From Janthinobacterium sp. UMAB-56 (GTDB taxonomy: Bacteria; Pseudomonadota; Gammaproteobacteria; Burkholderiales; Burkholderiaceae_D), in assembly GCF_900095265.1 (NCBI RefSeq), contig NZ_LT607663.1, forward strand, positions 1-64,000: a stretch of 64,000 nt of DNA, given 5' to 3'. The notes below the pieces were generated by a model. It worked only from the letters and a program-made list of their open reading frames with translations. It searched no databases and was not told where the DNA came from. Below, piece by piece: positions 125-15,303 of the stretch (its first letter is position 1; every line of letters starts with the position of its first letter). The translations under genes were made by a program, and so were the position numbers.

Positions 125-256
125 TGCGTCTCATCGGGGAGGCGAACTATAGCAAAGCGCCCTGGTAGTAGCAAGGCTTTTCAGGAGTATTTGCCGCCAA
201 CTGCTACAATTTCGCCCCCTCAGCGCAAATCCGCGTCCATACATAGAAGATTCACC

Positions 257-1636: not shown

Positions 1637-2251
1637 CTAGAGTACCCGGGTGTAGGTCTGGCGCACCAGCACCCGGTCACCGCAATCAAAATGCCACCAT
1701 TCGCTGTTGATGCCGAAGAAACCCGCCTGGAACATGGCGTCGCGCAACAAGCGGCGATGCGCCACGTGCTCTTCGGAAATCTCCCCCTTGTCCAGCAAGA
1801 CCAACTCCAGCGCCGGGTGCGAGCGCTCACTCAGATCATCAAAACCCGTACCCATGTCCAGTTCCTGCCCATCCGGCCCGACGATGGTGATGTCGAGCGC
1901 CATGCCGAACGAGTGGATCGAGCCGCGCGATGGTTCGGCTATATAGCCGAGCAACTCCGTCCCCTGCAGCGCATCCCACAATTGCTGCTGCACCCGTTGC
2001 GGGCGCAAGGCGTCGAGCACCAACAGATGATGACCGGGGCGATGCGCGGCCAGCCAGGCCACGGCCTTTTCCAGTGCGGCGGCCGCATCGCGGTGCAGCC
2101 AGGCGCAATCGATGGGGCTATATAAGTCGCGGCCGACGAAATTGTCGGGCGTGGCATAGCGCAAGTCGACGGCGATGCCGGCGATGCTGCTCAGGTGGCG
2201 AAATTGCGGATCGCTACCGACCGCTTCCAATTGCAAACTAGCAACAGACAT
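1637..2251 (-). CDS. VanX-type D-alanyl-D-alanine dipeptidase
   Basis: The 204-residue product belongs to the VanX/DdpX zinc dipeptidases, which hydrolyse D-Ala-D-Ala. The zinc motif SIHSFGMALD is at residues 111-120, giving ligands H113 and D120. EWWH at 184-187 gives the catalytic Glu184 and ligand His187, and R83 in DALRP matches the conserved substrate arginine. The start at 2251 overlaps the LysR stop as TAATG, with GAAGAG just upstream, so the two are probably translationally coupled. There is no vanHA ligase nearby, so use in cell-wall dipeptide catabolism (as for E. coli DdpX) is more likely than glycopeptide resistance. No signal peptide is seen, which indicates a cytoplasmic enzyme. 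Confidence 0.88.
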   Translation of the reverse strand: MSVASLQLEAVGSDPQFRHLSSIAGIAVDLRYATPDNFVGRDLYSPIDCAWLHRDAAAALEKAVAWLAAHRPGHHLLVLDALRPQRVQQQLWDALQGTELLGYIAEPSRGSIHSFGMALDITIVGPDGQELDMGTGFDDLSERSHPALELVLLDKGEISEEHVAHRRLLRDAMFQAGFFGINSEWWHFDCGDRVLVRQTYTRVL

Positions 2252-3153
2252 TAAGCTCTTCTTTCCAGGCACTGACGCGCCGCTACGCCAATGCTGTCGG
2301 CCAGGCGCCGCGCGCCATGCGACAGCGGCGAGTGGCTCGCCGTCAATAAATACAGTTGTATGGGTATCGTGGGCGCCCAAGGCCGGCGCTGCAGCCGCTC
2401 GGGCGAACCTGACGCAGCCGTAAATGGGTCGACCACGGCCATGCCGGCGCCCGCTTCCACCAGCGAGCGGGCAATTTGATAGGTTTGCACTACCGTACTG
2501 AAGACGGGGTGGATGTCCTGCGCCTCGCAGGCGGCCACCACCAGTTCACCCAGCGGATCGTTGTCCGCATGGCCGATCAGCTCGCCATTCAGGCCATGCG
2601 CCGTCAAAGGCGTGCCGCAATCGGCCGCATGCCAGGTGCCGGCCGGCGCGATCACCGTCATGACGCCCTGCGCAATCGGTTCGGCCACGATGCCCGGATG
2701 GCGCGGGTCTTGCAAGGACACGGCCAGGTCCGCTTCGCCGAGGCGCAAGGTATTGACGATCTCACCCGTGTGATGCGTGGCCAGCTGGCAACGCGTATGG
2801 GGAAAGTCGCGGCGCCACTGCGTCATGGCGAACGGCAAGACGCTGATGGCGAGCGTCGGCGTCGACACCAGGCGGATGGTTTCCACCGCGTGCCCCTTCA
2901 GGCTGGCCGCCAGGCGGCGGATACCCAATAAATCGCGGTTGAGCTTTTCCGTCTCGACAAACAGCCGGTGCGCCTCCGGCTTCGGGTACAGCTTGCCCCG
3001 CACGCGCTCGAACAGCGGCATGCCCAGTTGCAACTCGCAATGCTGCAAGACCTTGGTCACGGCAGGCTGCGAGATATGCAGCACCTGGGCGGCGCCGCTG
3101 ATGGTGCCAACTTGCATGATGGCGTGAAACACTTCGATATGACGCAGCCGCAT
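2251..3153 (-). CDS. LysR-family transcriptional regulator
   Basis: The protein has 300 residues, the usual LTTR length. The N-terminal winged helix-turn-helix covers residues 1-60 (MRLRHIEVFHAI, then GAAQVLHISQPAVTK), and a periplasmic-binding-protein-like effector domain fills residues 90-295. The stop overlaps the start of the VanX-like gene, so it is the first gene of a two-gene unit. It lies 83 bases downstream of the amiD-like gene on the same strand and may be read with the cell-wall recycling genes. Its effector is unknown; a muropeptide or a D-amino acid would fit the context. Confidence 0.85.
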   Translation of the reverse strand: MRLRHIEVFHAIMQVGTISGAAQVLHISQPAVTKVLQHCELQLGMPLFERVRGKLYPKPEAHRLFVETEKLNRDLLGIRRLAASLKGHAVETIRLVSTPTLAISVLPFAMTQWRRDFPHTRCQLATHHTGEIVNTLRLGEADLAVSLQDPRHPGIVAEPIAQGVMTVIAPAGTWHAADCGTPLTAHGLNGELIGHADNDPLGELVVAACEAQDIHPVFSTVVQTYQIARSLVEAGAGMAVVDPFTAASGSPERLQRRPWAPTIPIQLYLLTASHSPLSHGARRLADSIGVAARQCLERRA

Positions 3154-3236
3154 GAGCTATTCCTTTACCTTGCTTTGGCCATTCGGGCCATCAACGTTCA
3201 GCATATAAGAAAAAGGCATGGGCTGGAACGGTCGTG

Positions 3237-4037
3237 CTACTTTGCTACAACAGCTGGCGCCGGCGTCGTCAGCACTTCCAGCAAGGCCGCCGTTTCGCCA
3301 TCGGGCATGCCGTCGAACAGCGTATTGCGGTATTTCATCTGGAAGGCGATGAGCACATTGCGCGTCGCTTCGTCAAAGATGCCCGTATTCGGCGTGGCAT
3401 AACCGTGCTGGGCCAGCTTTTTCTGGAACCAGACGGCGTCCGGCACTTGCTGCTCAAAAATCATTCGTTGGGCGGCCACGCGGTTCGCATCGGGCCAGAC
3501 GATCAGGCCCGCATCGGCCAGCTGGCGCCATGGGAACAGGGGGCCCGGGTCCTGCTTGCGCTGCGGCGCGATTTCATTGTGGCCAAGGATGTTTTCCGGC
3601 GCGATGTTGTAGCGCGCCTGGATATCTTTCAACAGCGGAATCAACTCATCGATCTGCGCCTGCGGGAAGGGATACCAGAGGCGGCCTTCCGGCGTGTCCT
3701 TGTAGCCGGGATTGACGATCTCGATGCCGATCGAGCTGACATTCAACTGTGTATAAGTCTTCCAGTTACTCACACCCGCGTGATTGGCCTGGCGCGATTC
3801 GTCGACCAGCACGTAAAACTTCGGCTTGTCCGTATCCGTCAGCAAATAATGGCTGCTGACCACTTGTTCCGTCAGTATCTTGATCGAGCGGGGCAAGTCG
3901 CTGACCGTGTAATGGATGACGATGAATTTCACGCGCGGGCTCTGGCTGCGTGCGTTCAAACTATGGTCGAGGTGCGGCGCGGGCGTGGTACAGGCGGAGA
4001 GCAGGGCCACCAGCAGGGCGAGGGCGATTTTTTTCAT
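3237..4037 (-). CDS. amiD: AmiD-like N-acetylmuramoyl-L-alanine amidase, outer-membrane lipoprotein
   Basis: This 266-residue zinc amidase cleaves the bond between MurNAc and L-Ala, removing stem peptides from glycan strands or anhydro-muropeptides. A lipobox LLSAC places the acylated Cys at residue 16. The amidase_2 fold has likely zinc ligands H42, H153 and D163 (GHNEIAPQRKQDPGP) and a Glu at 106. A peptidoglycan-binding helical domain follows at about 205-258. This layout matches E. coli AmiD. The ATG at 4037 directly precedes a typical KK signal peptide. The gene ends a run of wall-recycling genes, 30 bases after the amino-sugar kinase gene. Confidence 0.88.
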   Translation of the reverse strand: MKKIALALLVALLSACTTPAPHLDHSLNARSQSPRVKFIVIHYTVSDLPRSIKILTEQVVSSHYLLTDTDKPKFYVLVDESRQANHAGVSNWKTYTQLNVSSIGIEIVNPGYKDTPEGRLWYPFPQAQIDELIPLLKDIQARYNIAPENILGHNEIAPQRKQDPGPLFPWRQLADAGLIVWPDANRVAAQRMIFEQQVPDAVWFQKKLAQHGYATPNTGIFDEATRNVLIAFQMKYRNTLFDGMPDGETAALLEVLTTPAPAVVAK

Positions 4038-4067
4038 GAAAGATCCATGTTCGGGTTAATAAAATAA

Positions 4068-5015
4068 TCAGTCTTTGCCGGCACACAAGCTGGCCGTCCT
4101 GGCTGCCAACTTGGCCGCGGCCTCATGTGATCGGGCAACTTTTTGCTCCATCATCAACGATACAGGCAAAGCGGCGCGCATGGCAGCAGCGATGGCCGGG
4201 TGCAATTGCGCCGCGCGGCCCGCCAGCACCACGGGACGCGGACCATAGCGCGCCGTCAGGGCCAGCGCCAATCGCGCCAGTTCCTGTCCCGCACGCTGCA
4301 AGATGTCCAGCGCCAGCGGGTCGGCATCCGCACTGGCGGCTACGGCCAGCGCCAGCCGGCCAATGGCGCCCCGGTCCTGGCCATACATGAAGGCGCGCGA
4401 CTGCGACCAGTCGCTCCCGCCCAGATGGGCAAACACGGCTTCGGCCATGGGCGAGGCTTGCCAACTGCCGGGCGCCTCGTCTTCGCGGCGCCAAATATGG
4501 CGCAAGGCTTCGCGCGCAATCCAGTAGCCGCCGCCGCCATCGTCAAGCAACACGCCGCGCCCGCCAGCACGGTGAAATCCCCCATCCGCATCGATCCAGG
4601 CGGCAATCGAACCGGTGCCAGCGTAGACCAGATAACCGGCACCCGGTTCAAAACTGTCGCGATAGGCAATGTCAATGTCGTTACCCACGCTGACGTTGGC
4701 GGCATCGACCGCCAGCAAGGTGGCCAGTGTTTGCGCCAGCACAACATCATCGCCGCCAAAGCCCGTCAAGCCCGCCATCACGGCACGCGGTCGGCCAACG
4801 GCCAGCACAGCCTGGCACAGCCTGGCAAACGTGGCGTGCACGGCGGCGCGACCCCCATCGCTGCCCATTTGCAAGGCAGACAAACCTTCCACGGCGCCGT
4901 CGGCCACGATCACGCCGTCAACGGTGGCCAGCGCCCAGCGCGTCTGCGTGCCGCCCGCGTCGATGCCCAGCCCGAGCACGGCAGTGTCAGTATTGGTTGC
5001 AGGGAAGGAAATCAT
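4068..5015 (-). CDS. BadF/BadG-type N-acetyl-amino-sugar kinase (GlcNAc/MurNAc kinase)
   Basis: The 315-residue protein is an actin-fold kinase of the BadF/BadG/BcrA/BcrD group. Its phosphate-1 loop DAGGTQT lies at residues 19-25, and it also shows AGTGSIA and a Gly-rich DDGGGGYW stretch. Members phosphorylate N-acetylglucosamine, and some, such as clostridial MurK, also phosphorylate MurNAc. With murQ in the same run, making MurNAc-6-phosphate is the obvious role. Longer in-frame starts at 5051 and 5072 both fall inside a 13-bp perfect inverted repeat, so ATG 5015 is preferred although no clear ribosome site precedes it. The exact sugar is inference. Confidence 0.78.
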   Translation of the reverse strand: MISFPATNTDTAVLGLGIDAGGTQTRWALATVDGVIVADGAVEGLSALQMGSDGGRAAVHATFARLCQAVLAVGRPRAVMAGLTGFGGDDVVLAQTLATLLAVDAANVSVGNDIDIAYRDSFEPGAGYLVYAGTGSIAAWIDADGGFHRAGGRGVLLDDGGGGYWIAREALRHIWRREDEAPGSWQASPMAEAVFAHLGGSDWSQSRAFMYGQDRGAIGRLALAVAASADADPLALDILQRAGQELARLALALTARYGPRPVVLAGRAAQLHPAIAAAMRAALPVSLMMEQKVARSHEAAAKLAARTASLCAGKD

Positions 5016-5042
5016 GGCGTGAGTGTAAAGCCAAGCTGAACT

Positions 5043-5079
5043 TGCAGGCATGAAAGCTTGCGCATGTTTCATGCCTGCA
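5043..5079. repeat. 13-bp perfect inverted repeat upstream of the amino-sugar kinase gene
   Basis: TGCAGGCATGAAA at 5043-5055 is repeated inverted as TTTCATGCCTGCA at 5067-5079 around an 11-base loop. It lies in the 86-base gap between the digH-like gene and the kinase gene. No T-run follows on either strand, so it is not a standard terminator. It could be an mRNA hairpin that sets relative expression or stability inside the operon, or a protein-binding site. Confidence 0.7.
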
Positions 5080-5101
5080 GGTTATGGACTACCGTTAACA
5101 A

Positions 5102-6769
5102 TTACTTGGCGGGGGCCGTAAACGGTGCGCGCACGGTGACGCGTGGGCTTTCATTGCCGAGGCGGTCCACGGCACTGACCACCACCGCGTTGACTTTACC
5201 GGTGGCATCGTCCAACAGCGTCAGCTCGCCCTGCACGCCCGTGACCACGGTAAAGCGCCAGTCTTCGCCATAGCGCGCCCACACGGCATACTGGGCCACG
5301 GCTTTGCCGCCACCCGTCGTCAATTTGACGTTCAGGCTGGTGGCATCGCGACGCAGTGCCAGCACGGGCGTACCCGGTGCTTCCTTGCCCAGCCACGGCG
5401 TGGCGGGAATCAGGGCAGGGCTTTGGTACACGCTCGCCTTGAGTTGTTCGCTGACACCCTTGCGGTTCTGCATCAGGGGCACCATGCTGAAATGCACATG
5501 TCCATTCGCGCCGGGGCGCGTGCGCGTCACTTCGATCTGCTTGATGATCTCTTGCGGCGTGAAGGACTTGGCGGAATTGTCGATGCGGCTCGTGTACAGG
5601 CCTGGCCACACATGGCGGCCATACGGGTTATGCGCCAGCCAGTAGTCGAGCAGCACGCCGAACGCTTGCGGCGCCTGCGCCACGGGCCAGTAGAGCTGCG
5701 GCGACAGATAATCGAGCCAGCCCTTGGCCAGCCACAACTCTGCATCCGCATACAATTTGTCGTACTGGCTGAAACCGACGATGCCGGCAGGGCGACGGTC
5801 CGGACGACCGATGCCGAATGGACTGATGCCGAAGCGCACCCAGCTCTTTTCGCGGTGGATACCTGTGTATAACGCTTCGATCAACTGATTGACGTTCTGG
5901 CGGCGCCAGGAAGCACGGTCCAGCTGGCCACCGGCCAGCAGATATTGCTGCCAGGAAGGCTCATCGGGAAACGGCAGTTCACGCCTGGCGCCGCCATTGC
6001 CCGCGTCCAGCGCGGCTGTTTCGGCACCGGCACCGGCGCCGGCGCCAGGCGCGTCGATCGGATACGGATAAAAGTAATCGTCGATGTGCACGCCATCGAT
6101 ATCGTAGCGGCGCACCACGTCGAGCACCACGTCCGTCGTGTGCCTGGACGCGGCGGCGTCGCCCGGGTCCATCCACAGGTAGCGGCCGTATTGCTTGACG
6201 GACGCCGGGTTGGTGGACGCGAAACTGTCGCGCGCCAGCGGCGACTTGGCCGTCGCGTGACGGGCCCGGTACGGGTTGAACCAGGCGTGCAATTCCAGGC
6301 CGCGCGCATGCGCCTGGGCTACCCAGAAAGCCAGTGGGTCATACATGGGCAACGGCGGCTGGCCTTGCTTACCGGTCAGGTATTCCGACCACGGTTCCAG
6401 CTGCGATGGGTAAATCGTATCGGCGCTGGGCCGCACCTGCAAGACAATCGCGTTCAGATTCAAGGACTTGGCGCGGTCGAGGATGGCGATGGCCTCGGCT
6501 TGCTGCTTGGCAACCGGCAAATTGCTACGGCTGGGCCAGTCGATATTGGCGACCGTCGAGACCCAGGCGGCGCGAAATTCGCGCGGCGCCGGCGGCGGCA
6601 CTTCGCCCGTGATGTGCTGCACGGGCGGCACGGCTGGCAAACCCGCGTCGCCCGGCGTCACAGCGGAGGGCATCTTGGTGCTGGTACAGCTGCTGAGCAA
6701 TGTGGCGGCGGCCAGCGCGGCCAGTACGCCGGCACAGGCGCCCAGGCGTTTTTTGAAAGTAGACAACAA
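5102..6769 (-). CDS. DigH/YddW-like glycosyl hydrolase (GHL10) lipoprotein
   Basis: The 555-residue product has a lipoprotein signal (lipobox LLSSC) and the glycosyl-hydrolase-like 10 domain, opening with FRAAWVSTVANIDWPS near residue 64. A C-terminal beta-rich domain follows. E. coli DigH (YddW) of this family cuts denuded glycan strands left by amidases, so it would act after the AmiD-like enzyme of the same cluster. Translation appears to start at TTG 6769, which has AAGGA six bases upstream; a second TTG follows directly. A short Gly-Ala repeat near residues 235-245 comes from a GC-rich hexanucleotide repeat and keeps the frame. Confidence 0.8.
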   Translation of the reverse strand: MLSTFKKRLGACAGVLAALAAATLLSSCTSTKMPSAVTPGDAGLPAVPPVQHITGEVPPPAPREFRAAWVSTVANIDWPSRSNLPVAKQQAEAIAILDRAKSLNLNAIVLQVRPSADTIYPSQLEPWSEYLTGKQGQPPLPMYDPLAFWVAQAHARGLELHAWFNPYRARHATAKSPLARDSFASTNPASVKQYGRYLWMDPGDAAASRHTTDVVLDVVRRYDIDGVHIDDYFYPYPIDAPGAGAGAGAETAALDAGNGGARRELPFPDEPSWQQYLLAGGQLDRASWRRQNVNQLIEALYTGIHREKSWVRFGISPFGIGRPDRRPAGIVGFSQYDKLYADAELWLAKGWLDYLSPQLYWPVAQAPQAFGVLLDYWLAHNPYGRHVWPGLYTSRIDNSAKSFTPQEIIKQIEVTRTRPGANGHVHFSMVPLMQNRKGVSEQLKASVYQSPALIPATPWLGKEAPGTPVLALRRDATSLNVKLTTGGGKAVAQYAVWARYGEDWRFTVVTGVQGELTLLDDATGKVNAVVVSAVDRLGNESPRVTVRAPFTAPAK

Positions 6770-6860
6770 AACAATTCCTTGCAGTGGTGGAGCGCAGGTC
6801 TATCGGTGCGGGCATTTTACTGTGCGCCCGCCATCCTTGCGGGCGCACCGTTCAAAAGAA

Positions 6861-8159
6861 TCAGGCCTCGGCCTTCTTGCCGAATTCGGGATCGATCTTG
6901 ACCAGTGCGGCCATGATGAAGGCGGGAATGGTGGCGATGCATACCCAGATGAAGAAATGCTGGTAGCCGAGCATTTGCTGTATCCAGCCGCTGGCCATGC
7001 CGGGCAGCATCATGCCCAGCGCCATGAAACCCGTGCAGATGGCGTAGTGGGCCGTTTTATGCGCGCCATCGGAGACCATGATCATGTACAACATGTAGGA
7101 CGCGAAACCGAAGCCATAGCCAAATTGCTCCAGGGCGATGCCACCGGCAATCACATAGATACTGCTGGGCAAGGTGCTGGCCAGGAAAACGAAGACCAGG
7201 TCGGGCAAGTGGACGGACAGCACCATGATCCACAGGCAGCGTTTCAAGCCGAAGCGGGAAATGATGAATCCGCCCAGCAAACCGCCGAGGGTCAGCGCGA
7301 TCACGCCGATGGTGCCGTAGACCAGACCCACCTGTTCCGTGCTGAGGCCCAGGCCGCCCTTGGCGACAGGGTCGAGCAGGAAGGGCGCGGCCAATTTGAG
7401 CAATTGCGCTTCACCGAGGCGGAACAGCAGCAAAAATCCCAGGATGACAAAAATATCCTTCTTCTTGAAGAAGGAAGCAAAGGTGGCGAGGAATTCCTGC
7501 ACCGGCGAAATACCGGCGCCCTGGATGCTGGGCTGGTCCTCCTTCGGTTTCGGCAAGACAAAATAGTGGTACAGGAAGAGGGCGATGAACAGGCCCGCCA
7601 GGATGGCGAACACGACGGACCAGGCCAGCTGCACATTGCCCGTCGCATGCGTCAAATAGCCAGCCAGAAACACCAGGCCACCCTGGCCGGCGATCATCGC
7701 CAATCGATAGAATGTGCTGCGCACGCCGACGAAGGCCGCCTGCTGATGTTCCTCCAGTCCCAGCATATAAAAGCCGTCGGCGGCAATATCATGCGTGGCA
7801 GAACTAAAAGCCATCAGCCAGAAGATGGCTAGGCTGATCTGGAAAAAATGCGGCAATGACGTCGTCAGGGCGACCAGCGCCAGCGCGGCACCGATCACCA
7901 GCTGCAAGCCGACGATCCAGAAACGCTTGGTGCGGTACATATCGATGAAGGGAGACCATAGCGGCTTGATAACCCAGGGCAAGTACAACCAGCTCGTGTA
8001 CAGCGCGATATCCGTATTGCTGAAACCATAGTTCTTGTACATGATCACGGACAAGGTCATGACCACTACATAGGGGATGCCCTGGCCAAAATACAGGGAG
8101 GGGATCCACAGCCACGGTTTTTTCGCGCGCGCCGGTGCGCTTTGTTTCACTAGCTCCAT
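6861..8159 (-). CDS. ampG: AmpG-type muropeptide permease (MFS)
   Basis: This 432-residue inner-membrane MFS protein resembles AmpG, which brings GlcNAc-anhydroMurNAc peptides into the cytoplasm with protons. The N-terminus shows the AmpG-like run PSLYFGQGIPY, and about 12 hydrophobic helices follow with a long cytoplasmic loop near residues 205-235. AAGGA lies just before the ATG at 8159. It sits between murQ (45 bases upstream) and the digH-like gene (91 bases downstream), so imported fragments meet MurQ in the cell. No ampC or ampR is next to it. Confidence 0.85.
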   Translation of the reverse strand: MELVKQSAPARAKKPWLWIPSLYFGQGIPYVVVMTLSVIMYKNYGFSNTDIALYTSWLYLPWVIKPLWSPFIDMYRTKRFWIVGLQLVIGAALALVALTTSLPHFFQISLAIFWLMAFSSATHDIAADGFYMLGLEEHQQAAFVGVRSTFYRLAMIAGQGGLVFLAGYLTHATGNVQLAWSVVFAILAGLFIALFLYHYFVLPKPKEDQPSIQGAGISPVQEFLATFASFFKKKDIFVILGFLLLFRLGEAQLLKLAAPFLLDPVAKGGLGLSTEQVGLVYGTIGVIALTLGGLLGGFIISRFGLKRCLWIMVLSVHLPDLVFVFLASTLPSSIYVIAGGIALEQFGYGFGFASYMLYMIMVSDGAHKTAHYAICTGFMALGMMLPGMASGWIQQMLGYQHFFIWVCIATIPAFIMAALVKIDPEFGKKAEA

Positions 8160-8204
8160 ACATCCTTCATAGTCTGCCAGACAGAAGAATGCCGCGCCAT
8201 CGGA

Positions 8205-9086
8205 TCACGCCGCCAGTGCTGCCCGCACACTGCCATCCGCGCCGGCCAGCAATGCCTGTGCCTGGTTTGTGTTGATTTTTTTGATCAAGGCAACAATCGC
8301 CACCTTGACGTGATAGTGGCATTGTTCCAACACGGCCCTGGCCTGCATTTCGCTGGCGCCGGTGGCATGCATGGTCAGACGCACCGCCCGCCAGATCAGC
8401 TTGGCGTTGGTCGGCTTCAAGTCTACCATCAAGTTTCCGTAAGTTTTATGCAAACCCACCATCAAGGAACTGGAAATTGTGTTCAGGGTGATTTTTTGCG
8501 CCGTGCCCGCTTTCAAGCGCGTGCTGCCGGATATGACTTCCATGCCCGTGTCAAGCACGATGCCGCATTGTGCCTCGTGCGCCACGGGGGCATCCACATT
8601 GTTGGCGATGCCGATGGTCAAGGCGCCCGCCGTGCGCGCCGCCAGTAGCGCGCCCAGCACGTAAGGCGTGGCGCCGGAGGCGGCCAGCAGGATCACGACA
8701 TCATTGGTTTGCGGCTGCAGGGCCAGCAAATCCTTCTCGCCTTGCAATAAATCATCTTCCGCCCCTTCCACGGCCACAAACATGGCGCCCGCGCCACCGG
8801 CCAGGATGGCGACAGCCCGCTCGGGCGGCCAGGAAAACGTGGGATTCAATTCAACGCTATCGAGCACGCCAAGCCGGCCCGATGTGCCCGCACCCACGTA
8901 CAACAGCCGTCCGCCTGCGGCGATACGCGGCAAGGCGGCAGTGATGGCGGCAGCGATCTGCGGCGACGCCAGCCGCACGGCTTCGACGGCCCAGAACTGG
9001 TCATCAACCAGCGCCGCCACCAGTTGCTCCACCGGATACAGGTCCAGATCCGGATGCCGCCGGCTCGGGGTTTCAGTTTTCAACAT
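8205..9086 (-). CDS. murQ: N-acetylmuramic acid 6-phosphate etherase
   Basis: MurQ removes D-lactate from MurNAc-6-phosphate, giving GlcNAc-6-phosphate in the cytoplasm. The 293-residue protein is a SIS-domain enzyme with the family run YVGAGTSGRLGVLD at residues 63-76. The expected catalytic Glu is at 79, and the second acidic motif VEGAEDD is also present. ATG 9086 is preferred over an in-frame start at 9128 because it gives the usual length. This is the first gene of the minus-strand recycling run (ampG, digH-like, kinase, amiD-like), so a promoter should lie within about 9087-9270. Confidence 0.93.
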   Translation of the reverse strand: MLKTETPSRRHPDLDLYPVEQLVAALVDDQFWAVEAVRLASPQIAAAITAALPRIAAGGRLLYVGAGTSGRLGVLDSVELNPTFSWPPERAVAILAGGAGAMFVAVEGAEDDLLQGEKDLLALQPQTNDVVILLAASGATPYVLGALLAARTAGALTIGIANNVDAPVAHEAQCGIVLDTGMEVISGSTRLKAGTAQKITLNTISSSLMVGLHKTYGNLMVDLKPTNAKLIWRAVRLTMHATGASEMQARAVLEQCHYHVKVAIVALIKKINTNQAQALLAGADGSVRAALAA

Positions 9087-9273
9087 GATTTCAGAACATG
9101 GTTGAAGGTGAAACCAGTTTAATACCAACGAGCGAGATCAACCATGAAAGCTTGGCAGGCGGGCATAACGGGAGCTTATGGCTAGTGCAGGAAGGTGGCG
9201 TGCTACATGTACTTCGATACGCTCCCATTTGTGTCTATACTTCAGCTCGACGCCCTCATCAACGACATGCCCC

Positions 9274-10332
9274 ATGATCGCTAGCCAATTGCTGTTCCTG
9301 TTTAGCGCCCTTGGCGCCATCAACGGCATTTTTCTGGCCGTCTATTTTTTCAGCCGTCGGCCTCGCTGCCTCGCCGACTGCATCCTGAGTGCATTGCTGC
9401 TTGCCGTCGGGGTGCGCACCGCCAAATCCGCCTTCCTCTTCTTCAACCCTGCGATCGCACTCGAATTCCGCCAGCTGGGCCTGTCGGCCTGCCTGCTGAT
9501 CGGTCCCTTGACCTATCTCTATGTGCGCTGTTTCATCGCCGGACTCGCGCAACTGCCTGCTGGACAACAATGGCGTTGGCATCTCGGCTTGTCCTGCCTG
9601 CTGATAGGCATGGGCGTTGCCTTTCCGTATTCCGCGTACCGCTCTGTGTGGGACCTGTCGAGCCATGCCATCCATGTGTTCTGGCTATGCTACCTGCTGG
9701 CAACTGCCAAGTTGCTCTGGCAAAGCCGCCATGCATGGTTGAACGACGGGCATCGGCTGGCGACCAGCAGCGTGCTCCTGCTGAGCGTCTTTGCCGGCAG
9801 CTGTGTCATGTTGGCGGCATACGCGAGCACGCCGTTCACGTCCTATATTGTCGGCGCCTTGTCATTCACCTTCTCGCTGCATGTCGCGGTCATGGTCTTT
9901 CTGCTGAGAAAGGAAACCTTGACGCCTGCCGAGCCGAAGCAGAAGTACCGGAATAGCCGCCTGACACACGAAGATGCACTTGCCGTGCTCGCTGCGCTGG
10001 AACAACTGATGAGCGTGCAACAATCCTATCTGAATCCGAATCTGACCCTGGCCCAACTGGCCAAGCGGGCCGGATGCACGCAGGCGCAGGTGTCGCAGGT
10101 ACTGAATGACAAGCTGAGCAAGAGCTTCAATACCTACGTCAACGCATACCGTATCGCCGAAGCGAAGCAGGTATTGACCGACGAGCCGCAACTGAACCTG
10201 GATATCGTTGCCGAGCGCTGCGGCTTCAATTCCAGTTCCACTTTCTACTCCACCTTCAAGAAAGTTGCCGGGCAGACGCCCGCCAGCTTCCGCGCCCAAT
10301 CTGGCCAGGCGGCCAGGGCCGTTTCCGCGTAA
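9274..10332 (+). CDS. Membrane-anchored AraC-family transcriptional regulator
   Basis: The 352-residue protein has six or seven hydrophobic helices in its first ~215 residues, then an AraC/XylS double helix-turn-helix at about 245-345. The DNA-binding part includes LAQLAKRAGCTQAQVSQVL and IVAERCGFNSSSTFYSTFKK. Such membrane-integral AraC proteins sense signals in or across the membrane. The ATG at 9274 begins directly with a hydrophobic helix; an upstream in-frame ATG at 9178 would add an unlikely Ser/Thr-rich leader. It lies 142 bases ahead of the exported NTF2/DJ-1 gene and is the best candidate to control it. It is divergent from murQ. Confidence 0.85.
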   Translation: MIASQLLFLFSALGAINGIFLAVYFFSRRPRCLADCILSALLLAVGVRTAKSAFLFFNPAIALEFRQLGLSACLLIGPLTYLYVRCFIAGLAQLPAGQQWRWHLGLSCLLIGMGVAFPYSAYRSVWDLSSHAIHVFWLCYLLATAKLLWQSRHAWLNDGHRLATSSVLLLSVFAGSCVMLAAYASTPFTSYIVGALSFTFSLHVAVMVFLLRKETLTPAEPKQKYRNSRLTHEDALAVLAALEQLMSVQQSYLNPNLTLAQLAKRAGCTQAQVSQVLNDKLSKSFNTYVNAYRIAEAKQVLTDEPQLNLDIVAERCGFNSSSTFYSTFKKVAGQTPASFRAQSGQAARAVSA

Positions 10333-10337
10333 AACCT

Positions 10338-10359
10338 CTCCGGAATCGCCATTCCGGAG
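10338..10359. repeat. 9-bp perfect inverted repeat after the AraC gene
   Basis: CTCCGGAAT (10338-10346) and ATTCCGGAG (10351-10359) form a perfect stem with a CGCC loop, six bases after the AraC-type gene stops. No T-run follows, so any terminator activity would be weak or need another factor. Confidence 0.55.
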
Positions 10360-10474
10360 TCTGAAATCATGTTTGGCGACATCCATTCCCCTGCATTTCG
10401 ATAACTTATCGACCAGCAACGATATGAAATAGTCGTTGCTCCGATAAACGTAGTTCTTCATTGAGGGTAAAGCC

Positions 10475-11608
10475 ATGATTCAGTCTTTATTGCGAACGGT
10501 ACTCGCCTGTTGCTTGCTAAGCATCGCCGCCGTTGGAAGCGCCGCAAGTGCAGACCAGGACGAAAATGCCATCCGGGAGACCGTGCGCTTGTATCTGCAT
10601 GGCACCAGCTTCAACGTACAGGACGAGATCAAGCAGGCCTTCCATGCAACCGCCCGCCTTTACCTGAACGGCAAAAACGATGCGGAATGGGAGTTGAGCG
10701 GTCCGGAATACGCAAAACTCTTTTCCCAAGAGAAAATAGGGCTATTCAATGGGCGCCACGGGCGACTGATCAAGGTGGATGTGAGCGGCAAGGTGGCCAC
10801 CGCCAAGGCCGAGATCCACATTCCCCAGCAAGGGGTCCGCTATGTGGATGTATTTCTGTTGAAAAAGATCGCCGGCAACTGGAAGATCGTCAGCAAGTCG
10901 GCCCATCGCGAACCAGCAGCCGCGCGCCAAGCACGCAAGGTGCTGCTGGTCGTGTCGAATGTGCATCAATATCCCGGCACGAAAATTAACGCCGGCAATA
11001 ATTTTCCCGAGCTTGCCTATACCTATGATGCCTTTCGCAAAGCAGGGTACGCGGTCGACTTCGTCAGTCCCGAGGGTGGCGCCATTCCGCTGGAAATGAT
11101 CGTCACGTCGGACGAGTTATTAAAAAGGCATCTGTACGACAGTGATTTCATGTGGGCACTGGCCCATACCAAGCCCGTCTCCGAGGTCAGGGCAGACGAG
11201 TATGCGGGCATGGCTTTCGTCGGCGGCGGCGCGGCCATCGTCGGTGTCCCGGACAACAAGCCGCTGCAGGACATCGCCTTGCGTATCTACGAACAACAGG
11301 GCGGGGTGATCGCGGCCATCTGCCATGGCACCGAGGGCATCAAGAATCTGAAGCTCAGTGACGGTACTTTCCTCATCCAGGGCAAGGTGCTCACCTCGTT
11401 CCCCGATGCGTTTCTGAACAAGGAATCGCCGATCTACAAGGCCTATCCCTTTTCGGCAGAAGGCAGCATCAAGCGCCATGGCGGCATATTCAGGCACGGC
11501 GCCAACGGCAAGAGTCACGTCGAGGTCGATGGCCGGCTAGTGACCGGCATGAGCTGGGAATCGTCCGTCGGCGTGGCCGAATCCATGATCCGCCTGTTCG
11601 GGCAGTAG
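10475..11608 (+). CDS. Exported NTF2-like / DJ-1-PfpI fusion protein
   Basis: The 377-residue protein starts with a cleavable-looking signal peptide (residues 1-26, ending GSAASA). An NTF2/SnoaL fold of the putative lumazine-binding type spans about 27-145, and a DJ-1/PfpI domain spans about 155-377. The DJ-1 nucleophile elbow AICHG puts Cys283 and His284 in place, and Glu179 may be the partner acid. DJ-1 proteins include proteases, chaperones, glyoxalases and hydratases, so the reaction is not known. The signal peptide suggests a periplasmic site, which is unusual for this family. GAGGG precedes the ATG. It converges with the GntR gene, two bases apart. Confidence 0.75.
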   Translation: MIQSLLRTVLACCLLSIAAVGSAASADQDENAIRETVRLYLHGTSFNVQDEIKQAFHATARLYLNGKNDAEWELSGPEYAKLFSQEKIGLFNGRHGRLIKVDVSGKVATAKAEIHIPQQGVRYVDVFLLKKIAGNWKIVSKSAHREPAAARQARKVLLVVSNVHQYPGTKINAGNNFPELAYTYDAFRKAGYAVDFVSPEGGAIPLEMIVTSDELLKRHLYDSDFMWALAHTKPVSEVRADEYAGMAFVGGGAAIVGVPDNKPLQDIALRIYEQQGGVIAAICHGTEGIKNLKLSDGTFLIQGKVLTSFPDAFLNKESPIYKAYPFSAEGSIKRHGGIFRHGANGKSHVEVDGRLVTGMSWESSVGVAESMIRLFGQ

Positions 11609-11610
11609 AT

Positions 11611-12351
11611 TTATGGGGCGCGGCGCATCTCCGCCACAAAATCGTAATGGTCGCTGCGGCAATACGAATGCGTCAGTTCCACCGCCTCGCCCGACTCCAG
11701 ATAGGCGATGCGCGTGATGAACAGCACGGCCTGGCCATCGGGGATGCCCAGTTGCTTGGCCAGCACGTCCGTCGCATTCATGGCGCGGATGTGCTGCAAG
11801 GCGCGCACGGGGGCCTTCTTGATGCTGCTCAAGTATTCATACAGCGAATCGCCCATGGCGGCCGGCTCCGGCACCACGCTGAAGGGCAGCACGCTCACTT
11901 CATACGCCATCACCACGTCGTCGGCCAGGCGCAAGCGCTCCAGGCGCGCCACTTTCGTATTCTGCGCCAGGCCCAGGCTCAGCTGTTCATCGCTGCTGGC
12001 GATGACGACTTCGCGCTTGAGCCAGCGCGAGCCGGGGCGGTAGCCGCGCTGCTGCAGTTGCTCGGAAAAGCTCGACAGGTTCGACAGCGGCTGCTCGATG
12101 CGTGGGGCAATATAATTGCCCGATCCACGGCGACGCACGACGAGGCCTTGCTCGACGAGCTGGTCGATGGCCTTGCGGGCAGTCACGCGCGATACGTCGA
12201 GCAGTTCGGACAGGGTACGTTCGGATGGCAGGGCCTGGTCTACCTGGTAGCGGCCATTGCGTACGTCATCGCTCAGCTTGCGGGCGATCTGCATATATAA
12301 AGGCGAATTGTCATTTAAATCGACCTTGAGTTCTACGCTGGTCTGGCTCAT
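11611..12351 (-). CDS. GntR-family (HutC/UTRA) transcriptional regulator
   Basis: This 246-residue regulator has a winged helix-turn-helix at about 15-80 (LPSERTLSELLDVSRVTARKAIDQL, here only pointed to by its LDVSRVTARKAI core) and a UTRA effector domain at about 100-240. UTRA regulators bind small metabolites; NagR/DasR members bind GlcNAc-6-phosphate or glucosamine-6-phosphate, the products expected from MurQ. It is transcribed away from the serine beta-lactamase family gene and shares its 227-base upstream region, so it may control that gene and itself. The effector assignment is inference from context. Confidence 0.85.
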   Translation of the reverse strand: MSQTSVELKVDLNDNSPLYMQIARKLSDDVRNGRYQVDQALPSERTLSELLDVSRVTARKAIDQLVEQGLVVRRRGSGNYIAPRIEQPLSNLSSFSEQLQQRGYRPGSRWLKREVVIASSDEQLSLGLAQNTKVARLERLRLADDVVMAYEVSVLPFSVVPEPAAMGDSLYEYLSSIKKAPVRALQHIRAMNATDVLAKQLGIPDGQAVLFITRIAYLESGEAVELTHSYCRSDHYDFVAEMRRAP

Positions 12352-12430
12352 ACAGTTCTCCTTGTCCTCCTAGTGTAATAGCGATGGCGCTTGCGCGTAG
12401 CCCGTCCGCCCATGAATAAATGGAAAATGG

Positions 12431-12449
12431 GTATAAATAACGGTTATAC
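12431..12449. promoter_or_regulatory. Candidate operator between the GntR regulator and serine hydrolase genes
   Basis: GTATAA (12431-12436) and TTATAC (12444-12449) are inverted copies seven bases apart in the AT-rich divergent spacer. GT...AC half-sites are common for GntR/HutC regulators, so this is the best candidate site by eye. No binding evidence is available. Confidence 0.35.
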
Positions 12450-12578
12450 ACTTAAAAAAACAATGTTTTACCGTACGTATAGCTTGGCATTATAGATAAA
12501 TAAGCAATTTTCATTGGCCTTGGACGGCATCCCGCCCTATGCTGGCGATGCCTCCATTACACCGAGAAACAGGGAAAC

Positions 12579-13925
12579 ATGCATAATAAAATGACGGGCT
12601 TACTGGGCTTGCTGCTACTGGGCACGACCTGGACCGCGTTGGCTGCCCCGCCCGGCAGCGGCACCGAGCAACTCGTGCAACACGAGCGGCAGCGCGCACT
12701 CGATGCCACGCTTTCGGCCATCGTCGATGACCCGGCCCACCCGCTGGCCAGCCTGTCCGTGCTGGCCATCCGCCAGGGCAAGGTGTCGTATCAACAACAA
12801 TTCGGCTACCGCTACATCGGCGTTACGCCAGCGGACAGCTTGCCCGTGACGTCAGCCACCCTGTTCCGCATCGCGTCCATCTCAAAGATGATGACCACCC
12901 TGGGCCTGATGCGGCTGGTCGAGCAGGGCAAGCTGAGCCTGGACCAGGACGTGGGATTCTATCTGGGCTTTTCGCTGCGCAACCCGCACTTCCCCCAGCA
13001 AGCACTGACCCTGCGCCGCCTGCTCAGCCATACTTCCTCGCTGCGCGACGCGGGCGGCTATGCCTGGGGCCCCGAGCACAGCTTGCGCGACGTGTTTACG
13101 GCTGGCGGCGATAGCATGTGGGATGCGGCTGCGGCACCAGGCAGTTACTTTAGCTATTCCAACCTCAACTGGGGCGTGATCGGCAGCGTGATGGAAAAAG
13201 TCACGGGCGAGCGTTTCGACTTGCTGATGCGGCGTTTGCTGCTCGACCCCATGGAGCTGCGCGGCGGCTACAACCCGGCGGCGTTCACGGCCGATGAAGT
13301 GGCGAACACGGCCACGCTGTACCGCAAGCGCACAGTGGAAACGGAAGTGTGGCAGCCGCAAGGGCCATGGCTCGCCCAGGTCGACGATTTTCACGCCCGC
13401 CCACCCGCCGCGCCCGCCAGCTTGGCCAACTACGTGATTGGCAGCAACGCCACCGTTTTCAGTCCCACGGGCGGCTTGCGCATCTCCGCTGCCGACCTGG
13501 GCAAGGTCATGCAGATGCTGCTCGACGATGGCACCTACCAGGGCAAGCAACTATTGCAGCCCGCCAGCATCGCCTTGATGTTTGGCCGGCAATGGCAACT
13601 GGGGCCAGATGCCGGCAATGGCGACAGTGAGCGGGGCCTGTACCGCGCCTGGGGCCTGGGCAACCAGCAGTTCGATGCAGTGACGGGGCGGGGCAACGGC
13701 CTGGTCGAGGGCGCCAGTTTTGATGCGGTTGGCCACCTGGGAGAGGCGTATGGCCTGGTCTCCGCCTTCGTGCTCGATTTCAAGAACAAGAATGGCATGG
13801 TGATGCTGGTGGGTGGCACGGGCAGCGACCCCGAACGCTATCCGGGCACGTATTCCGCCATGGGGCGCAGCGAAGAATTGATACTCACCACTCTATACCA
13901 TGGCGCAATTGGCAAGCATGAATGA
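12579..13925 (+). CDS. Exported serine hydrolase of the beta-lactamase / DD-peptidase family
   Basis: The 448-residue protein has a signal peptide (residues 1-22) and the PF00144 class-C-like fold. The SxxK motif is SISK at residues 100-103 and the YxN motif is YSN at 193-195. A late His-Leu-Gly (in VGHLGEAYG) stands where KTG is found in class C beta-lactamases. This divergence argues for a DD-peptidase, esterase or D-aminopeptidase-like role rather than a true AmpC. The length also exceeds AmpC (about 380). AGGGAA precedes ATG 12579. It is divergent from the GntR regulator and followed by the DadA-like gene. Confidence 0.82.
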   Translation: MHNKMTGLLGLLLLGTTWTALAAPPGSGTEQLVQHERQRALDATLSAIVDDPAHPLASLSVLAIRQGKVSYQQQFGYRYIGVTPADSLPVTSATLFRIASISKMMTTLGLMRLVEQGKLSLDQDVGFYLGFSLRNPHFPQQALTLRRLLSHTSSLRDAGGYAWGPEHSLRDVFTAGGDSMWDAAAAPGSYFSYSNLNWGVIGSVMEKVTGERFDLLMRRLLLDPMELRGGYNPAAFTADEVANTATLYRKRTVETEVWQPQGPWLAQVDDFHARPPAAPASLANYVIGSNATVFSPTGGLRISAADLGKVMQMLLDDGTYQGKQLLQPASIALMFGRQWQLGPDAGNGDSERGLYRAWGLGNQQFDAVTGRGNGLVEGASFDAVGHLGEAYGLVSAFVLDFKNKNGMVMLVGGTGSDPERYPGTYSAMGRSEELILTTLYHGAIGKHE

Positions 13926-14055
13926 TTTGCACTGAAATAGTGCATTCCTGAAAGTTATGGCTGCACCATGATGTTTCATTGGCTCCCGTGATGGCCAGCC
14001 TCTAAGCTCTTCCCGAATGCTCCCGCACCATGGGAGCGCAACGCAGCGAGGCAAC

Positions 14056-15303
14056 ATGCAGCAACAAGTCATCATTATCGGCGGCGGCATCGTCGGCCTG
14101 ACATCGGCCTGGTGGCTGGCAGAGGCCGGCTACAGGGTCACGGTATTGGAACGCAATGAACAGGTGGCGATCGCCGCCAGCTACCGCAATGGCGGCCAGC
14201 TCAGCTACCGCTATGTGGCGCCGCTGGCGGACGCCGGCGTGCCCTTCAAAGCCCTGCAATGGCTGCTGCAGAAAGACGGCCCGCTGCGCTTCCGCCCCGA
14301 GGCCGACTGGCGCCAGTGGCGCTGGCTGGCCAGTTTCCTGCGCAATTGCAATGCCACCAGCAATGCCCGCACGACGGCCAAACTGCTGCAATTGGGAGAA
14401 TGGAGCCGCGCCGGCATGGCACAGCTGGAATTGACCGTGCCGCCCGAAGCGTATGCCTGGCGCAATGCAGGCAAACTCATCGTCTACCGCTCGCCCGCCA
14501 TCTTTCAGCGGGCCGTGGCGCGGCCCGAGTCGGAAGAGGCGCGCATCGTGCTGTCACCGGCCGAAGCGGTGCAGCGCGAACCGGCGCTGGGGGCCTTGCA
14601 GGGCGCCCTGGCGGGCGGCATCTTTACCGAGGGCGAGGCGGTGGCCGATTGCCACGCCTTTTGCCTGGCGCTGGAAGCGCGCCTGCTGCAGCACCCGAAT
14701 TGTTCACGCATTTTAAAAGGCGAGGCGCGCCGCCTCGTCACGCACAAGGGCAAGATCACCGGCGTCGACACCAGCCTGGGCCTGTTGCAGGCAGATCACT
14801 ATGTGCTGGCGGCCGGCATCCAGAGCCGCGACCTGGCCGCCACGGCGGGTATTTACCTGCCCCTGTATCCGCTCAAAGGCTACAGCCTGACGGCGCCCAT
14901 CCGCGCGCAAGACCGCGCGCCCGAGATCAGCATCACGGATTTCGAACGCAAGGTACTGTATGCGCGCATCGGCAGCGATTTGCGCGTGGCCGCCATGGTC
15001 GACATGGTGGGTGCCGACAATAGCATCGACTGGAACCGCATCGCCGGCCTGACGCGGCTGGCGCGCGAAGCCATGCCGCACGGCGCCGATTACGAGCAGG
15101 CCACGGCCTGGGCCGGCCTGCGCCCCGCCACGCCGAACAGCGCGCCACTGGTGGGCGCCAGCAAGTACACCAATCTGTGGCTCAACGTGGGCCATGGTCC
15201 GCTGGGTTTTACCTTTGCCGCCGGCACGGCGCGCATCCTCGCCGATCTTATGGCCGGCAAGGCGCCACCGTTCGCGCTGGACTTCCTCGCGCCTCGAAAA
15301 TAG
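14056..15303 (+). CDS. DadA-like FAD-dependent D-amino-acid dehydrogenase
   Basis: The 415-residue protein is a DAO-fold flavoenzyme with the FAD-binding IIIGGGIVGL at residues 6-15. DadA oxidises D-alanine and other D-amino acids to keto acids and passes electrons to the respiratory chain. The C-terminal GLRPATPNSAPLVG and GHGPLGFT stretches match this group. ATG 14056 follows GCGAGG and begins directly with the dinucleotide-binding strand; an in-frame start at 14017 would add 13 residues. With the VanX-like dipeptidase in the region, a role in oxidising wall-derived D-Ala is likely but other D-amino acids or glycine-type substrates are possible. Confidence 0.82.
   Translation: MQQQVIIIGGGIVGLTSAWWLAEAGYRVTVLERNEQVAIAASYRNGGQLSYRYVAPLADAGVPFKALQWLLQKDGPLRFRPEADWRQWRWLASFLRNCNATSNARTTAKLLQLGEWSRAGMAQLELTVPPEAYAWRNAGKLIVYRSPAIFQRAVARPESEEARIVLSPAEAVQREPALGALQGALAGGIFTEGEAVADCHAFCLALEARLLQHPNCSRILKGEARRLVTHKGKITGVDTSLGLLQADHYVLAAGIQSRDLAATAGIYLPLYPLKGYSLTAPIRAQDRAPEISITDFERKVLYARIGSDLRVAAMVDMVGADNSIDWNRIAGLTRLAREAMPHGADYEQATAWAGLRPATPNSAPLVGASKYTNLWLNVGHGPLGFTFAAGTARILADLMAGKAPPFALDFLAPRK

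What the first reader, a model, noticed from the sequence alone, without database searches (positions are those of the whole stretch)
1637..15303. A cell-wall recycling island with import, sugar, peptide and D-alanine steps side by side
murQ, ampG, a DigH-like hydrolase, a BadF-type amino-sugar kinase and an AmiD-like amidase are consecutive on the minus strand. A VanX-like D-Ala-D-Ala dipeptidase, an NSS symporter, a serine DD-peptidase-family protein and a DadA-like dehydrogenase lie around them, with LysR and GntR/UTRA regulators. The DigH and AmiD types fit in sequence, since DigH cuts glycans that amidases have stripped. This could be a scavenging system for exogenous or self-derived wall. 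AnmK, NagZ, AmpD and LdcA are not in the window, so the internal route is incomplete here.
Basis: partly seen in the sequence, partly recalled or inferred. Interest (0 to 1): 0.7.

Follow-up and report, generated by a model that had tools for sequence, protein, structure and literature searches.

The report
Cell-wall sugar eating gene cluster
Janthinobacterium and its relatives keep a conserved set of genes that appears built to break down bacterial cell wall and burn its signature sugar, muramic acid, for food, alongside a separate pathway that reuses the same sugar to rebuild their own wall.

Summary
The genes are there and broadly as named. A minus-strand run, gntR-murQ-AmpG-like-GHL10(DigH-like)-BadF kinase-AmiD-like-lysR-vanX, recurs in Janthinobacterium, Massilia, Duganella, Pseudoduganella and Rugamonas; it is rearranged in 9 of 57 relative regions, 8 of them without GHL10 nearby. 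AraC and DJ-1 are an insertion; NSS was seen only in Janthinobacterium-genus regions. The route is not incomplete: anmK, nagZ, ampD, ldcA, a canonical ampG, and murU with an upstream amgK-like gene lie elsewhere in the genome. The sharper result: murQ tracks the BadF kinase (59 both, 3 kinase only, 1 murQ only, 132 neither, of 195 family genomes), whereas anmK is in 190 of 195. MurU is over cut-off in 57 of 60 murQ+ genomes, although PMC5371407 says beta- and gammaproteobacteria have either MurQ or AmgK-MurU. Best reading: a dedicated catabolic MurNAc route beside the anabolic one, resembling Tannerella's ampG-murTKQ operon but a new betaproteobacterial variant. Kinase substrate, transport and growth are untested.

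The parts
1637..2251 (-). VanX/DdpX-like D-Ala-D-Ala dipeptidase, no signal peptide seen; in 50 of 56 full-flank relatives
   Evidence: PF01427 115 bits (on the longer ORF 1637-2380); PRK10178 150 bits, under cut-off 176; motifs; conservation
2251..3153 (-). LysR-type regulator, overlaps vanX; 27 of 56 full-flank relatives
   Evidence: PF00126/PF03466; LysR-VanX median gap 9 nt in 46 named loci
3237..4037 (-). AmiD-like N-acetylmuramoyl-L-alanine amidase, lipobox (Amidase_2 + PG_binding_1); 56 of 56
4068..5072 (-). BadF-type sugar kinase, proposed MurNAc 6-kinase; catalytic D132, lactyl-side loop G170-G171-R172; start codon uncertain (residues 1-29 low confidence in the model)
5102..6769 (-). 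GHL10 (DigH-like) glycoside hydrolase, lipobox; 56 of 56 named full-flank loci, but absent within the flanks of 8 of 57 regions, all more divergent
   Evidence: PF02638 185 bits; lipobox
6861..8159 (-). AmpG-like MFS permease, 39% to the own nag-locus MFS and 27% to the own canonical AmpG; 56 of 56
8205..9086 (-). MurQ, MurNAc-6-phosphate etherase; 54 of 56
11611..12351 (-). GntR-UTRA regulator, 58% to the GntR of the own nag (GlcNAc) locus; 55 of 56; next to murQ on the same strand in 63 of 75 named loci
12369..12384 (-). conserved promoter-like block (TATTACACTAG and flanks) just upstream of gntR
   Evidence: (9-mer TAGTGTAAT in 52 of 76 upstream regions); not reported by the simple promoter scan
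12579..13925 (+). class C beta-lactamase-fold serine hydrolase with an N-terminal signal-like stretch, divergent neighbour; 20 of 56
   Evidence: PF00144 141 bits
14017..15303 (+). DadA D-amino acid dehydrogenase, divergent neighbour; 31 of 56
   Evidence: PRK00711 425 bits, cut-off 383
9178..11608 (+). AraC regulator and DJ-1/lumazine-binding protein: insertion between gntR and murQ, not part of the unit
   Evidence: 9 of 80 named loci; 4 of 7 same-genus and 0 of 50 other kinase regions
191..1636 (+). NSS sodium symporter, local neighbour in Janthinobacterium, probably not part of the unit
   Evidence: 7 of 7 same-genus and 0 of 50 other kinase regions; 17 of 80 named loci

Best explanation
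The locus is a peptidoglycan-fragment catabolic operon. Lipoprotein AmiD strips stem peptides from wall fragments, and the lipoprotein DigH-like GHL10 hydrolase cuts the denuded glycan hydrolytically to sugars with a free, non-anhydro MurNAc end. The AmpG-like MFS imports the disaccharide (GlcNAc-MurNAc, perhaps also MurNAc), and NagZ, encoded elsewhere, splits it. The BadF kinase phosphorylates MurNAc at C6, MurQ converts MurNAc-6P to GlcNAc-6P plus D-lactate, and NagA and NagB-II of the separate nag locus lead it to fructose-6P. VanX and DadA handle D-Ala-D-Ala and D-Ala. GntR-UTRA, a paralogue of the nag regulator, probably senses a GlcNAc-6P-like intermediate. AnmK with AmgK-MurU runs as a separate anabolic route, and the two meet at MurNAc-6P. 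Shown: gene content, recurring order, co-occurrence, presence of the other routes' genes. Inferred: every substrate, direction of transport, localisation, regulation, co-transcription. MupP was not looked for.
For: Recurring order and short gaps. MurQ tracks the kinase: 59 both, 3 kinase only, 1 MurQ only, 132 neither of 195; Fisher p 4e-45, not corrected for shared ancestry. By genus: both in 8 of 44, MurQ only in 1. AnmK is in 190 of 195, of which only 60 have MurQ. The kinase profile hits C. acetobutylicum MurK (8zo3, 1.4e-17) and T. forsythia MurK (8ow9, 9e-4). The positions of Tf MurK S133 and P134 are Gly-Gly in 55 of 55 kinases examined. NagZ, AmpD, LdcA and AmpG pass NCBIfam cut-offs, MurU and NagA too. 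In Deinococcus plasmids a BadF kinase of 37-42% identity (over about 60% of the query) has an annotated MurQ within the stretch in 2 of 10 loci viewed (13 records matched) and an annotated family 10 glycosylhydrolase in 4 others. T. forsythia AmpG imports GlcNAc-MurNAc as well as GlcNAc-anhMurNAc (PMC7670621, passages).
Against: MurQ and the kinase are mostly in one operon in one clade, so co-occurrence is largely one linked inheritance. The closest solved kinase is S. tokodaii hexokinase, and NagK structures rank above Ca MurK (below it). R172 (His in 3 of 55) lies in the 133-136 region where PMC10465942 says bulky charged or polar residues clash with MurNAc, though its paralogue K1058 has an Arg there and binds MurNAc; the same Arg is in the hexokinase. 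The T94-equivalent is mostly Asn or Ser, not Thr. GHL10 is missing within the flanks of 8 of 57 regions that keep kinase and amidase (L078-L084, L087; one further region, L077, is too short to tell), so GHL10 is not obligatory. Exceptions: G107 has MurQ without the kinase; G040, G120 and G176 have the kinase without MurQ. G045 has a second MurQ beside an AnmK and a sodium:solute symporter, so MurQ can partner AnmK. Four of 10 Deinococcus loci viewed had neither partner. No growth, transcript or enzyme data.
Confidence: 0.7

Rival explanations
1. The BadF kinase is a second GlcNAc kinase. It handles GlcNAc released from the disaccharide, and MurQ is fed by AnmK as in E. coli, so the locus is ordinary recycling with an extra NagK.
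For: Its one NCBIfam hit is NagK (60 bits, far under cut-off 370). Best solved relatives include NagK. R172 could clash with the lactyl group by the criterion of PMC10465942. One relative, G045, pairs AnmK with MurQ in one locus.
Against: AnmK is in 190 of 195 genomes but MurQ is in only 60 of those 190, 59 of them with this kinase. A separate NagK-like gene already sits in the nag locus. All 55 kinases examined have R/H where hNAGK, 1zc6, Ca MurK and the own NagK have W (Ca MurK is named as a MurNAc/GlcNAc kinase, so W does not exclude MurNAc).
Confidence: 0.18
2. The operon serves self-wall turnover and daughter-cell separation (AmiD and DigH) with recovery of the products, not use of foreign wall.
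For: E. coli DigH cuts denuded glycans at the septum (PMC12288456, passages). AmiD-type enzymes act on own turnover products (recalled).
Against: The kinase-murQ pair is in only 8 of 44 genera of the family, so it is no general requirement for division there. The locus carries its own MFS, MurQ and regulator, and some relatives add TonB receptors and an OppA-type binding protein.
Confidence: 0.09

Closest known systems
Tannerella forsythia ampG-ybbC-murT-murK-murQ operon (Tanf_08345-08385)
   Same: AmpG-type permease, BadF-family MurNAc kinase and MurQ in one locus; AmgK-MurU anabolic route in the same cell (PMC7670621, PMC5388701, PMC5790795; passages)
   Different: Here GHL10, AmiD-like and VanX stand where that operon has YbbC, LytB and glycosyltransferases; no MurT; a GntR instead of GppX; AnmK present (none predicted in T. 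forsythia)
Clostridium acetobutylicum MurK (8zo3)
   Same: BadF family, named MurNAc/GlcNAc kinase; profile E 1.4e-17
   Different: 20% identity over the fold alignment; Trp where ours has Arg
E. coli AnmK-MurQ recycling with MurP PTS uptake
   Same: MurQ and the GlcNAc-6P end point
   Different: here an MFS and a BadF kinase in the locus, and MurU is present as well
Pseudomonas AnmK-MupP-AmgK-MurU route
   Same: AnmK and MurU present, with an amgK-like gene upstream of murU
   Different: MurQ present too; PMC5371407 states an either/or for beta- and gammaproteobacteria (passages)
own nag (GlcNAc) locus, contig C14
   Same: paralogous GntR (58%), MFS (39%), BadF kinase (29%)
   Different: nag locus has NagA and NagB-II-like genes; the window's MurQ, amidase and GHL10 have no match in its 19 kb

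Membership tests
MurK-type MurNAc kinase | BadF/BcrAD family with DxGGTxT, catalytic Asp and GTGS | tested here: met
MurK-type MurNAc kinase | no bulky charged or polar residue at the lactyl-side positions (S133, P134, L135 in Tf MurK) | tested here: inconclusive
   G170 and G171 in 55 of 55, but R172 is Arg in 52 and His in 3; K1058 has Arg in this region and binds MurNAc; mapping goes through hNAGK G145 as given in PMC10465942
MurK-type MurNAc kinase | Thr at T94 next to the catalytic Asp | tested here: not met
   N 41, S 12, D 1, T 1 of 55; Ca MurK also has Asn there, so this holds for Tf MurK only
MurK-type MurNAc kinase | phosphorylates MurNAc at C6 | not testable with these tools
   enzyme assay needed
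MurQ etherase | curated MurQ models | tested here: met
   NF003915 350>168, NF009222 304>255; but TIGR00274 279<302
canonical AmpG | TIGR00901 over cut-off | tested here: not met
   187 < 350 bits; the canonical copy on C6 scores 478
DigH / GHL10 | GHL10 domain and lipoprotein signal | tested here: met
   that E. coli DigH is a GHL10 lipoprotein is recalled
DigH / GHL10 | cuts denuded glycans | not testable with these tools
   enzyme assay needed
T. forsythia-type MurNAc utilisation operon | MurT symporter of the sodium symporter superfamily in the operon | tested here: not met
   the run holds no symporter gene; the NSS beside it is seen only in the own genus; an SSF symporter was seen in the second G045 locus
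anabolic MurU route | MurU equivalog and AmgK beside it | tested here: met
   MurU 312>250; APH-family gene upstream on the same strand, called AmgK by position only
anabolic MurU route | MupP phosphatase | not tested
   -

The most novel reading that the evidence does not exclude
A clade of Oxalobacteraceae runs two opposed MurNAc pathways in one cell: AnmK-AmgK-MurU for rebuilding wall and a dedicated MurNAc kinase plus MurQ for burning foreign wall, branching at MurNAc-6P under a GntR regulator recruited from the chitin/GlcNAc locus. The kinase is a new MurK clade in which Arg172 reads the lactyl carboxylate, and GHL10 (DigH-family) enzymes are feeder muramidases of MurNAc catabolism, an association that recurs in Deinococcus.
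Probability: 0.32. Interest if true: 0.65.

Novelty: new variant of a known kind. Interest (0 to 1): 0.47.

Why it matters
One paper states that in beta- and gammaproteobacteria either MurQ or AmgK-MurU is present, and built its search for MupP on that expectation (PMC5371407, passages). Here 57 of 60 MurQ+ genomes also carry MurU. The locus offers a testable way in which environmental bacteria could eat peptidoglycan, ties DigH-type hydrolases to MurNAc catabolism, and suggests a switch between reuse and combustion of the same sugar phosphate.

Tried and rejected
NSS, AraC and DJ-1 as parts: rejected because they are confined to the own genus in the regions compared. An operator for GntR: only a promoter-like block was found and no shared palindrome; its three overlapping words occur at one place in the window and not in own regions L091-L093. 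The promoter scan gave 2 sites (4.4 expected in shuffles) and the terminator scan 16 (11.8 expected, sd 3.7): not informative. No Rfam element at gathering score in the window except one tRNA. Reading the kinase's sugar from sequence: not possible; the MurK paper itself says so. The AF2 model (mean pLDDT 83.4) is low at residues 173-177, beside the lactyl loop, so I claim no pocket geometry. Plasmid carriage of this kinase: no plasmid hit covers 80% of it; the 13 matching records are all Deinococcus. Wide distribution: in 369 genomes of the class (own genome the only one of its family listed) no other close kinase was found (own 495 bits, next 67); but one of the 80 named loci, L186, is a MAG labelled Nitrosomonadaceae (60% identity), either mislabelled or a member outside the family. 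That the locus is not in print rests only on paper searches in the held library; no listed title or abstract start describes it. PMC11980594 (passages) speaks of both catabolic and anabolic signatures in Caulobacter, but without MurQ.
Full report
OBSERVATION. The window is the start of a contig of a 6.1-Mb genome in 82 contigs; its closest named kinase relatives are Janthinobacterium, up to 93% identical. Names need care: the MFS, the VanX-like protein, the AmiD-like protein, the kinase and the serine hydrolase are all below the NCBIfam cut-offs they approach, while MurQ (two of three models), DadA and the NSS pass.

CONSERVATION. I took 57 kinase regions from 56 of the 62 family genomes with a close kinase (the own genome and five others of its genus were left out; one genome gave two regions) plus 3 own-genome regions, and compared all window genes. 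In 9 of the 57 (L078-L084, L087, L089) the order is rearranged, and in 8 of these no GHL10 lies within the region; a few regions are cut by contig ends. I then took 80 named loci by profile search (285 relatives were reported in the species genomes and only the best 80 by kinase similarity are returned, which biases the set to close relatives). In the 56 with full 10-kb flanks the core is gntR-murQ-MFS-GHL10-kinase-amidase-(lysR)-vanX, with kinase, amidase, GHL10 and MFS in 56, gntR 55, murQ 54, vanX 50, dadA 31, lysR 27, serine hydrolase 20. Median gaps between co-directional matches are 9-123 nt (match ends, not gene ends). In the window the gaps are 45, 91, 29, 30, 83 and -1 nt from murQ to vanX, while gntR is 2.5 kb away because AraC and DJ-1 lie between. 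Over the 60 regions, ORF clusters add a HGSNAT/NagX-like membrane acyltransferase (18 regions; seen between MFS and GHL10 in L041, and 18 of 79 named loci have a gap over 800 nt there), and, often beyond the vanX end, an S13 DacB-type peptidase (28), a Gate-domain protein (32) and an SBP_bac_5 protein (26) (one member of each was run against Pfam).

THE OTHER ROUTES. The own genome has anmK, canonical ampG, nagZ, ampD and ldcA over cut-off, murU over cut-off with an APH-family gene upstream on the same strand, taken as amgK, and a nag locus with NagA over cut-off and NagK-like and NagB-II-like genes below theirs.

MURQ GOES WITH THE KINASE. Of 195 family genomes, 62 have a close kinase (my threshold E<1e-70; 99 match at E<=0.001, the rest being distant BadF proteins) and 60 have a true MurQ (my threshold E<1e-80; 192 match at E<=0.001, the rest being weak SIS-type matches; only 17 exceed TIGR00274's cut-off). 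Both 59, kinase only 3, MurQ only 1, neither 132. By genus: both in 8 of 44, MurQ only in one. AnmK is in 190 of 195; 60 of those 190 have MurQ. MurU is over cut-off in 187 of 195 and in 57 of the 60 MurQ+ genomes (the three without, G019, G027 and G148, were picked out by E-value, since not all bit scores are listed). PMC5371407 (passages) says that in beta- and gammaproteobacteria either MurQ or AmgK-MurU is present. T. forsythia has both (PMC7670621, passages), so coexistence as such is not new. The kinase and murQ are usually linked, so the co-occurrence is mainly one inheritance; its value is that murQ does not follow anmK.

KINASE. Single-sequence and profile searches place it with S. 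tokodaii hexokinase, C. acetobutylicum MurK, C. violaceum NagK and human NAGK, and the fold search gives the same set (2e2o 4e-17, human NAGK 8e-15, 1zc6 4e-14, Ca MurK 8e-14, Tf MurK 1e-10). Two of the positions that make room for the lactyl group in Tf MurK (PMC10465942: abstract, passages and Discussion seen) are Gly-Gly in 55 of 55 kinases (window plus 54 of 57 relatives). The next position is Arg in 52 and His in 3, but Trp in the own NagK, human NAGK, 1zc6 and Ca MurK, and Arg in the hexokinase. By the paper's criterion a bulky charged residue there could clash with MurNAc; its MurNAc-binding paralogue K1058 nevertheless has an Arg in this region. I propose R172 as a lactyl-carboxylate contact; this is inference and could be wrong. 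In 369 genomes of the class no other has a close member, so the clade looks confined to this family, with one MAG labelled otherwise (L186).

INDEPENDENT PAIRING. In Deinococcus plasmids a BadF kinase of 37-42% identity over about 60% of the query is the nearest plasmid relative. Of 10 loci viewed (13 records matched), MurQ is annotated within the stretch in 2 and a family 10 glycosylhydrolase in 4 others. Two of those four also carry a DUF1343 protein, and one of these an amidase too. Four loci had neither partner. These are annotated names from an incomplete gene table.

MECHANISM. AmiD and GHL10 carry lipoboxes, so they should act at the outer membrane (inference). E. coli DigH degrades denuded glycans (PMC12288456, passages); whether by hydrolysis with a reducing MurNAc end I did not see in the passages and take from its description as a glycosyl hydrolase. 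Such a product needs a MurNAc kinase and not AnmK (established logic, inferred for this case). GntR, MFS and kinase are paralogues of nag-locus genes at 58, 39 and 29%, which suggests that part of the locus arose from a GlcNAc locus. The GntR effector is inferred from relatives (recalled).

EXCEPTIONS. G040 and G120 lack gntR and murQ matches in their regions, with the MFS next to ychJ, and the kinase match of G040 is in two pieces about 0.5 kb apart. G089 has murQ with lysR, a TonB receptor and an S66 peptidase beside dadA on another contig. G107 has murQ with an AmiD relative and an SBP but no kinase match in the region. G045 has a second locus of TonB receptor, sodium:solute symporter, GntR, AnmK and MurQ.

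VERDICT. A real, conserved and probably catabolic locus, a new variant of a known kind; interesting mainly for the coexistence with MurU and for the kinase/GHL10 pairing.

Noticed in passing
upstream of window position 1; L039 1-4843: In a complete relative an rRNA operon (SSU, two tRNAs, LSU) lies just upstream of the NSS gene, which would explain why this contig and several relatives' contigs start there.
   Followed up: partly
9178-11608: AraC regulator plus DJ-1/lumazine-binding protein inserted between gntR and murQ in part of Janthinobacterium.
   Followed up: partly
L105 922-8268: Second MurNAc locus in genome G045: TonB receptor, sodium:solute symporter, GntR, AnmK, MurQ.
   Followed up: partly
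L104 6599-13936: In G089 murQ and lysR lie beside dadA, with a TonB receptor and an S66 LdcA-like peptidase.
   Followed up: partly
L106 349-9715: MurQ, dadA, a DUF5009 protein, a TonB receptor and a second GHL10 hydrolase near one contig end of G125.
   Followed up: no
L041 6467-7606; same ORF cluster in 18 of 60 regions: HGSNAT/NagX-like membrane acyltransferase between the MFS and GHL10 genes; perhaps re-acetylates amino sugars.
   Followed up: no
L079 12260-13258, L089 8122-9093: AstE/AspA-type zinc hydrolase near the cluster in divergent relatives; a possible murein-peptide amidase.
   Followed up: no
L085 9271-10689: Kinase match in two pieces about 0.5 kb apart in a genome whose region lacks gntR and murQ.
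   Followed up: no
L186: A close kinase (60% identity) in a MAG labelled Nitrosomonadaceae: mislabelled contig or a member outside the family.
   Followed up: no
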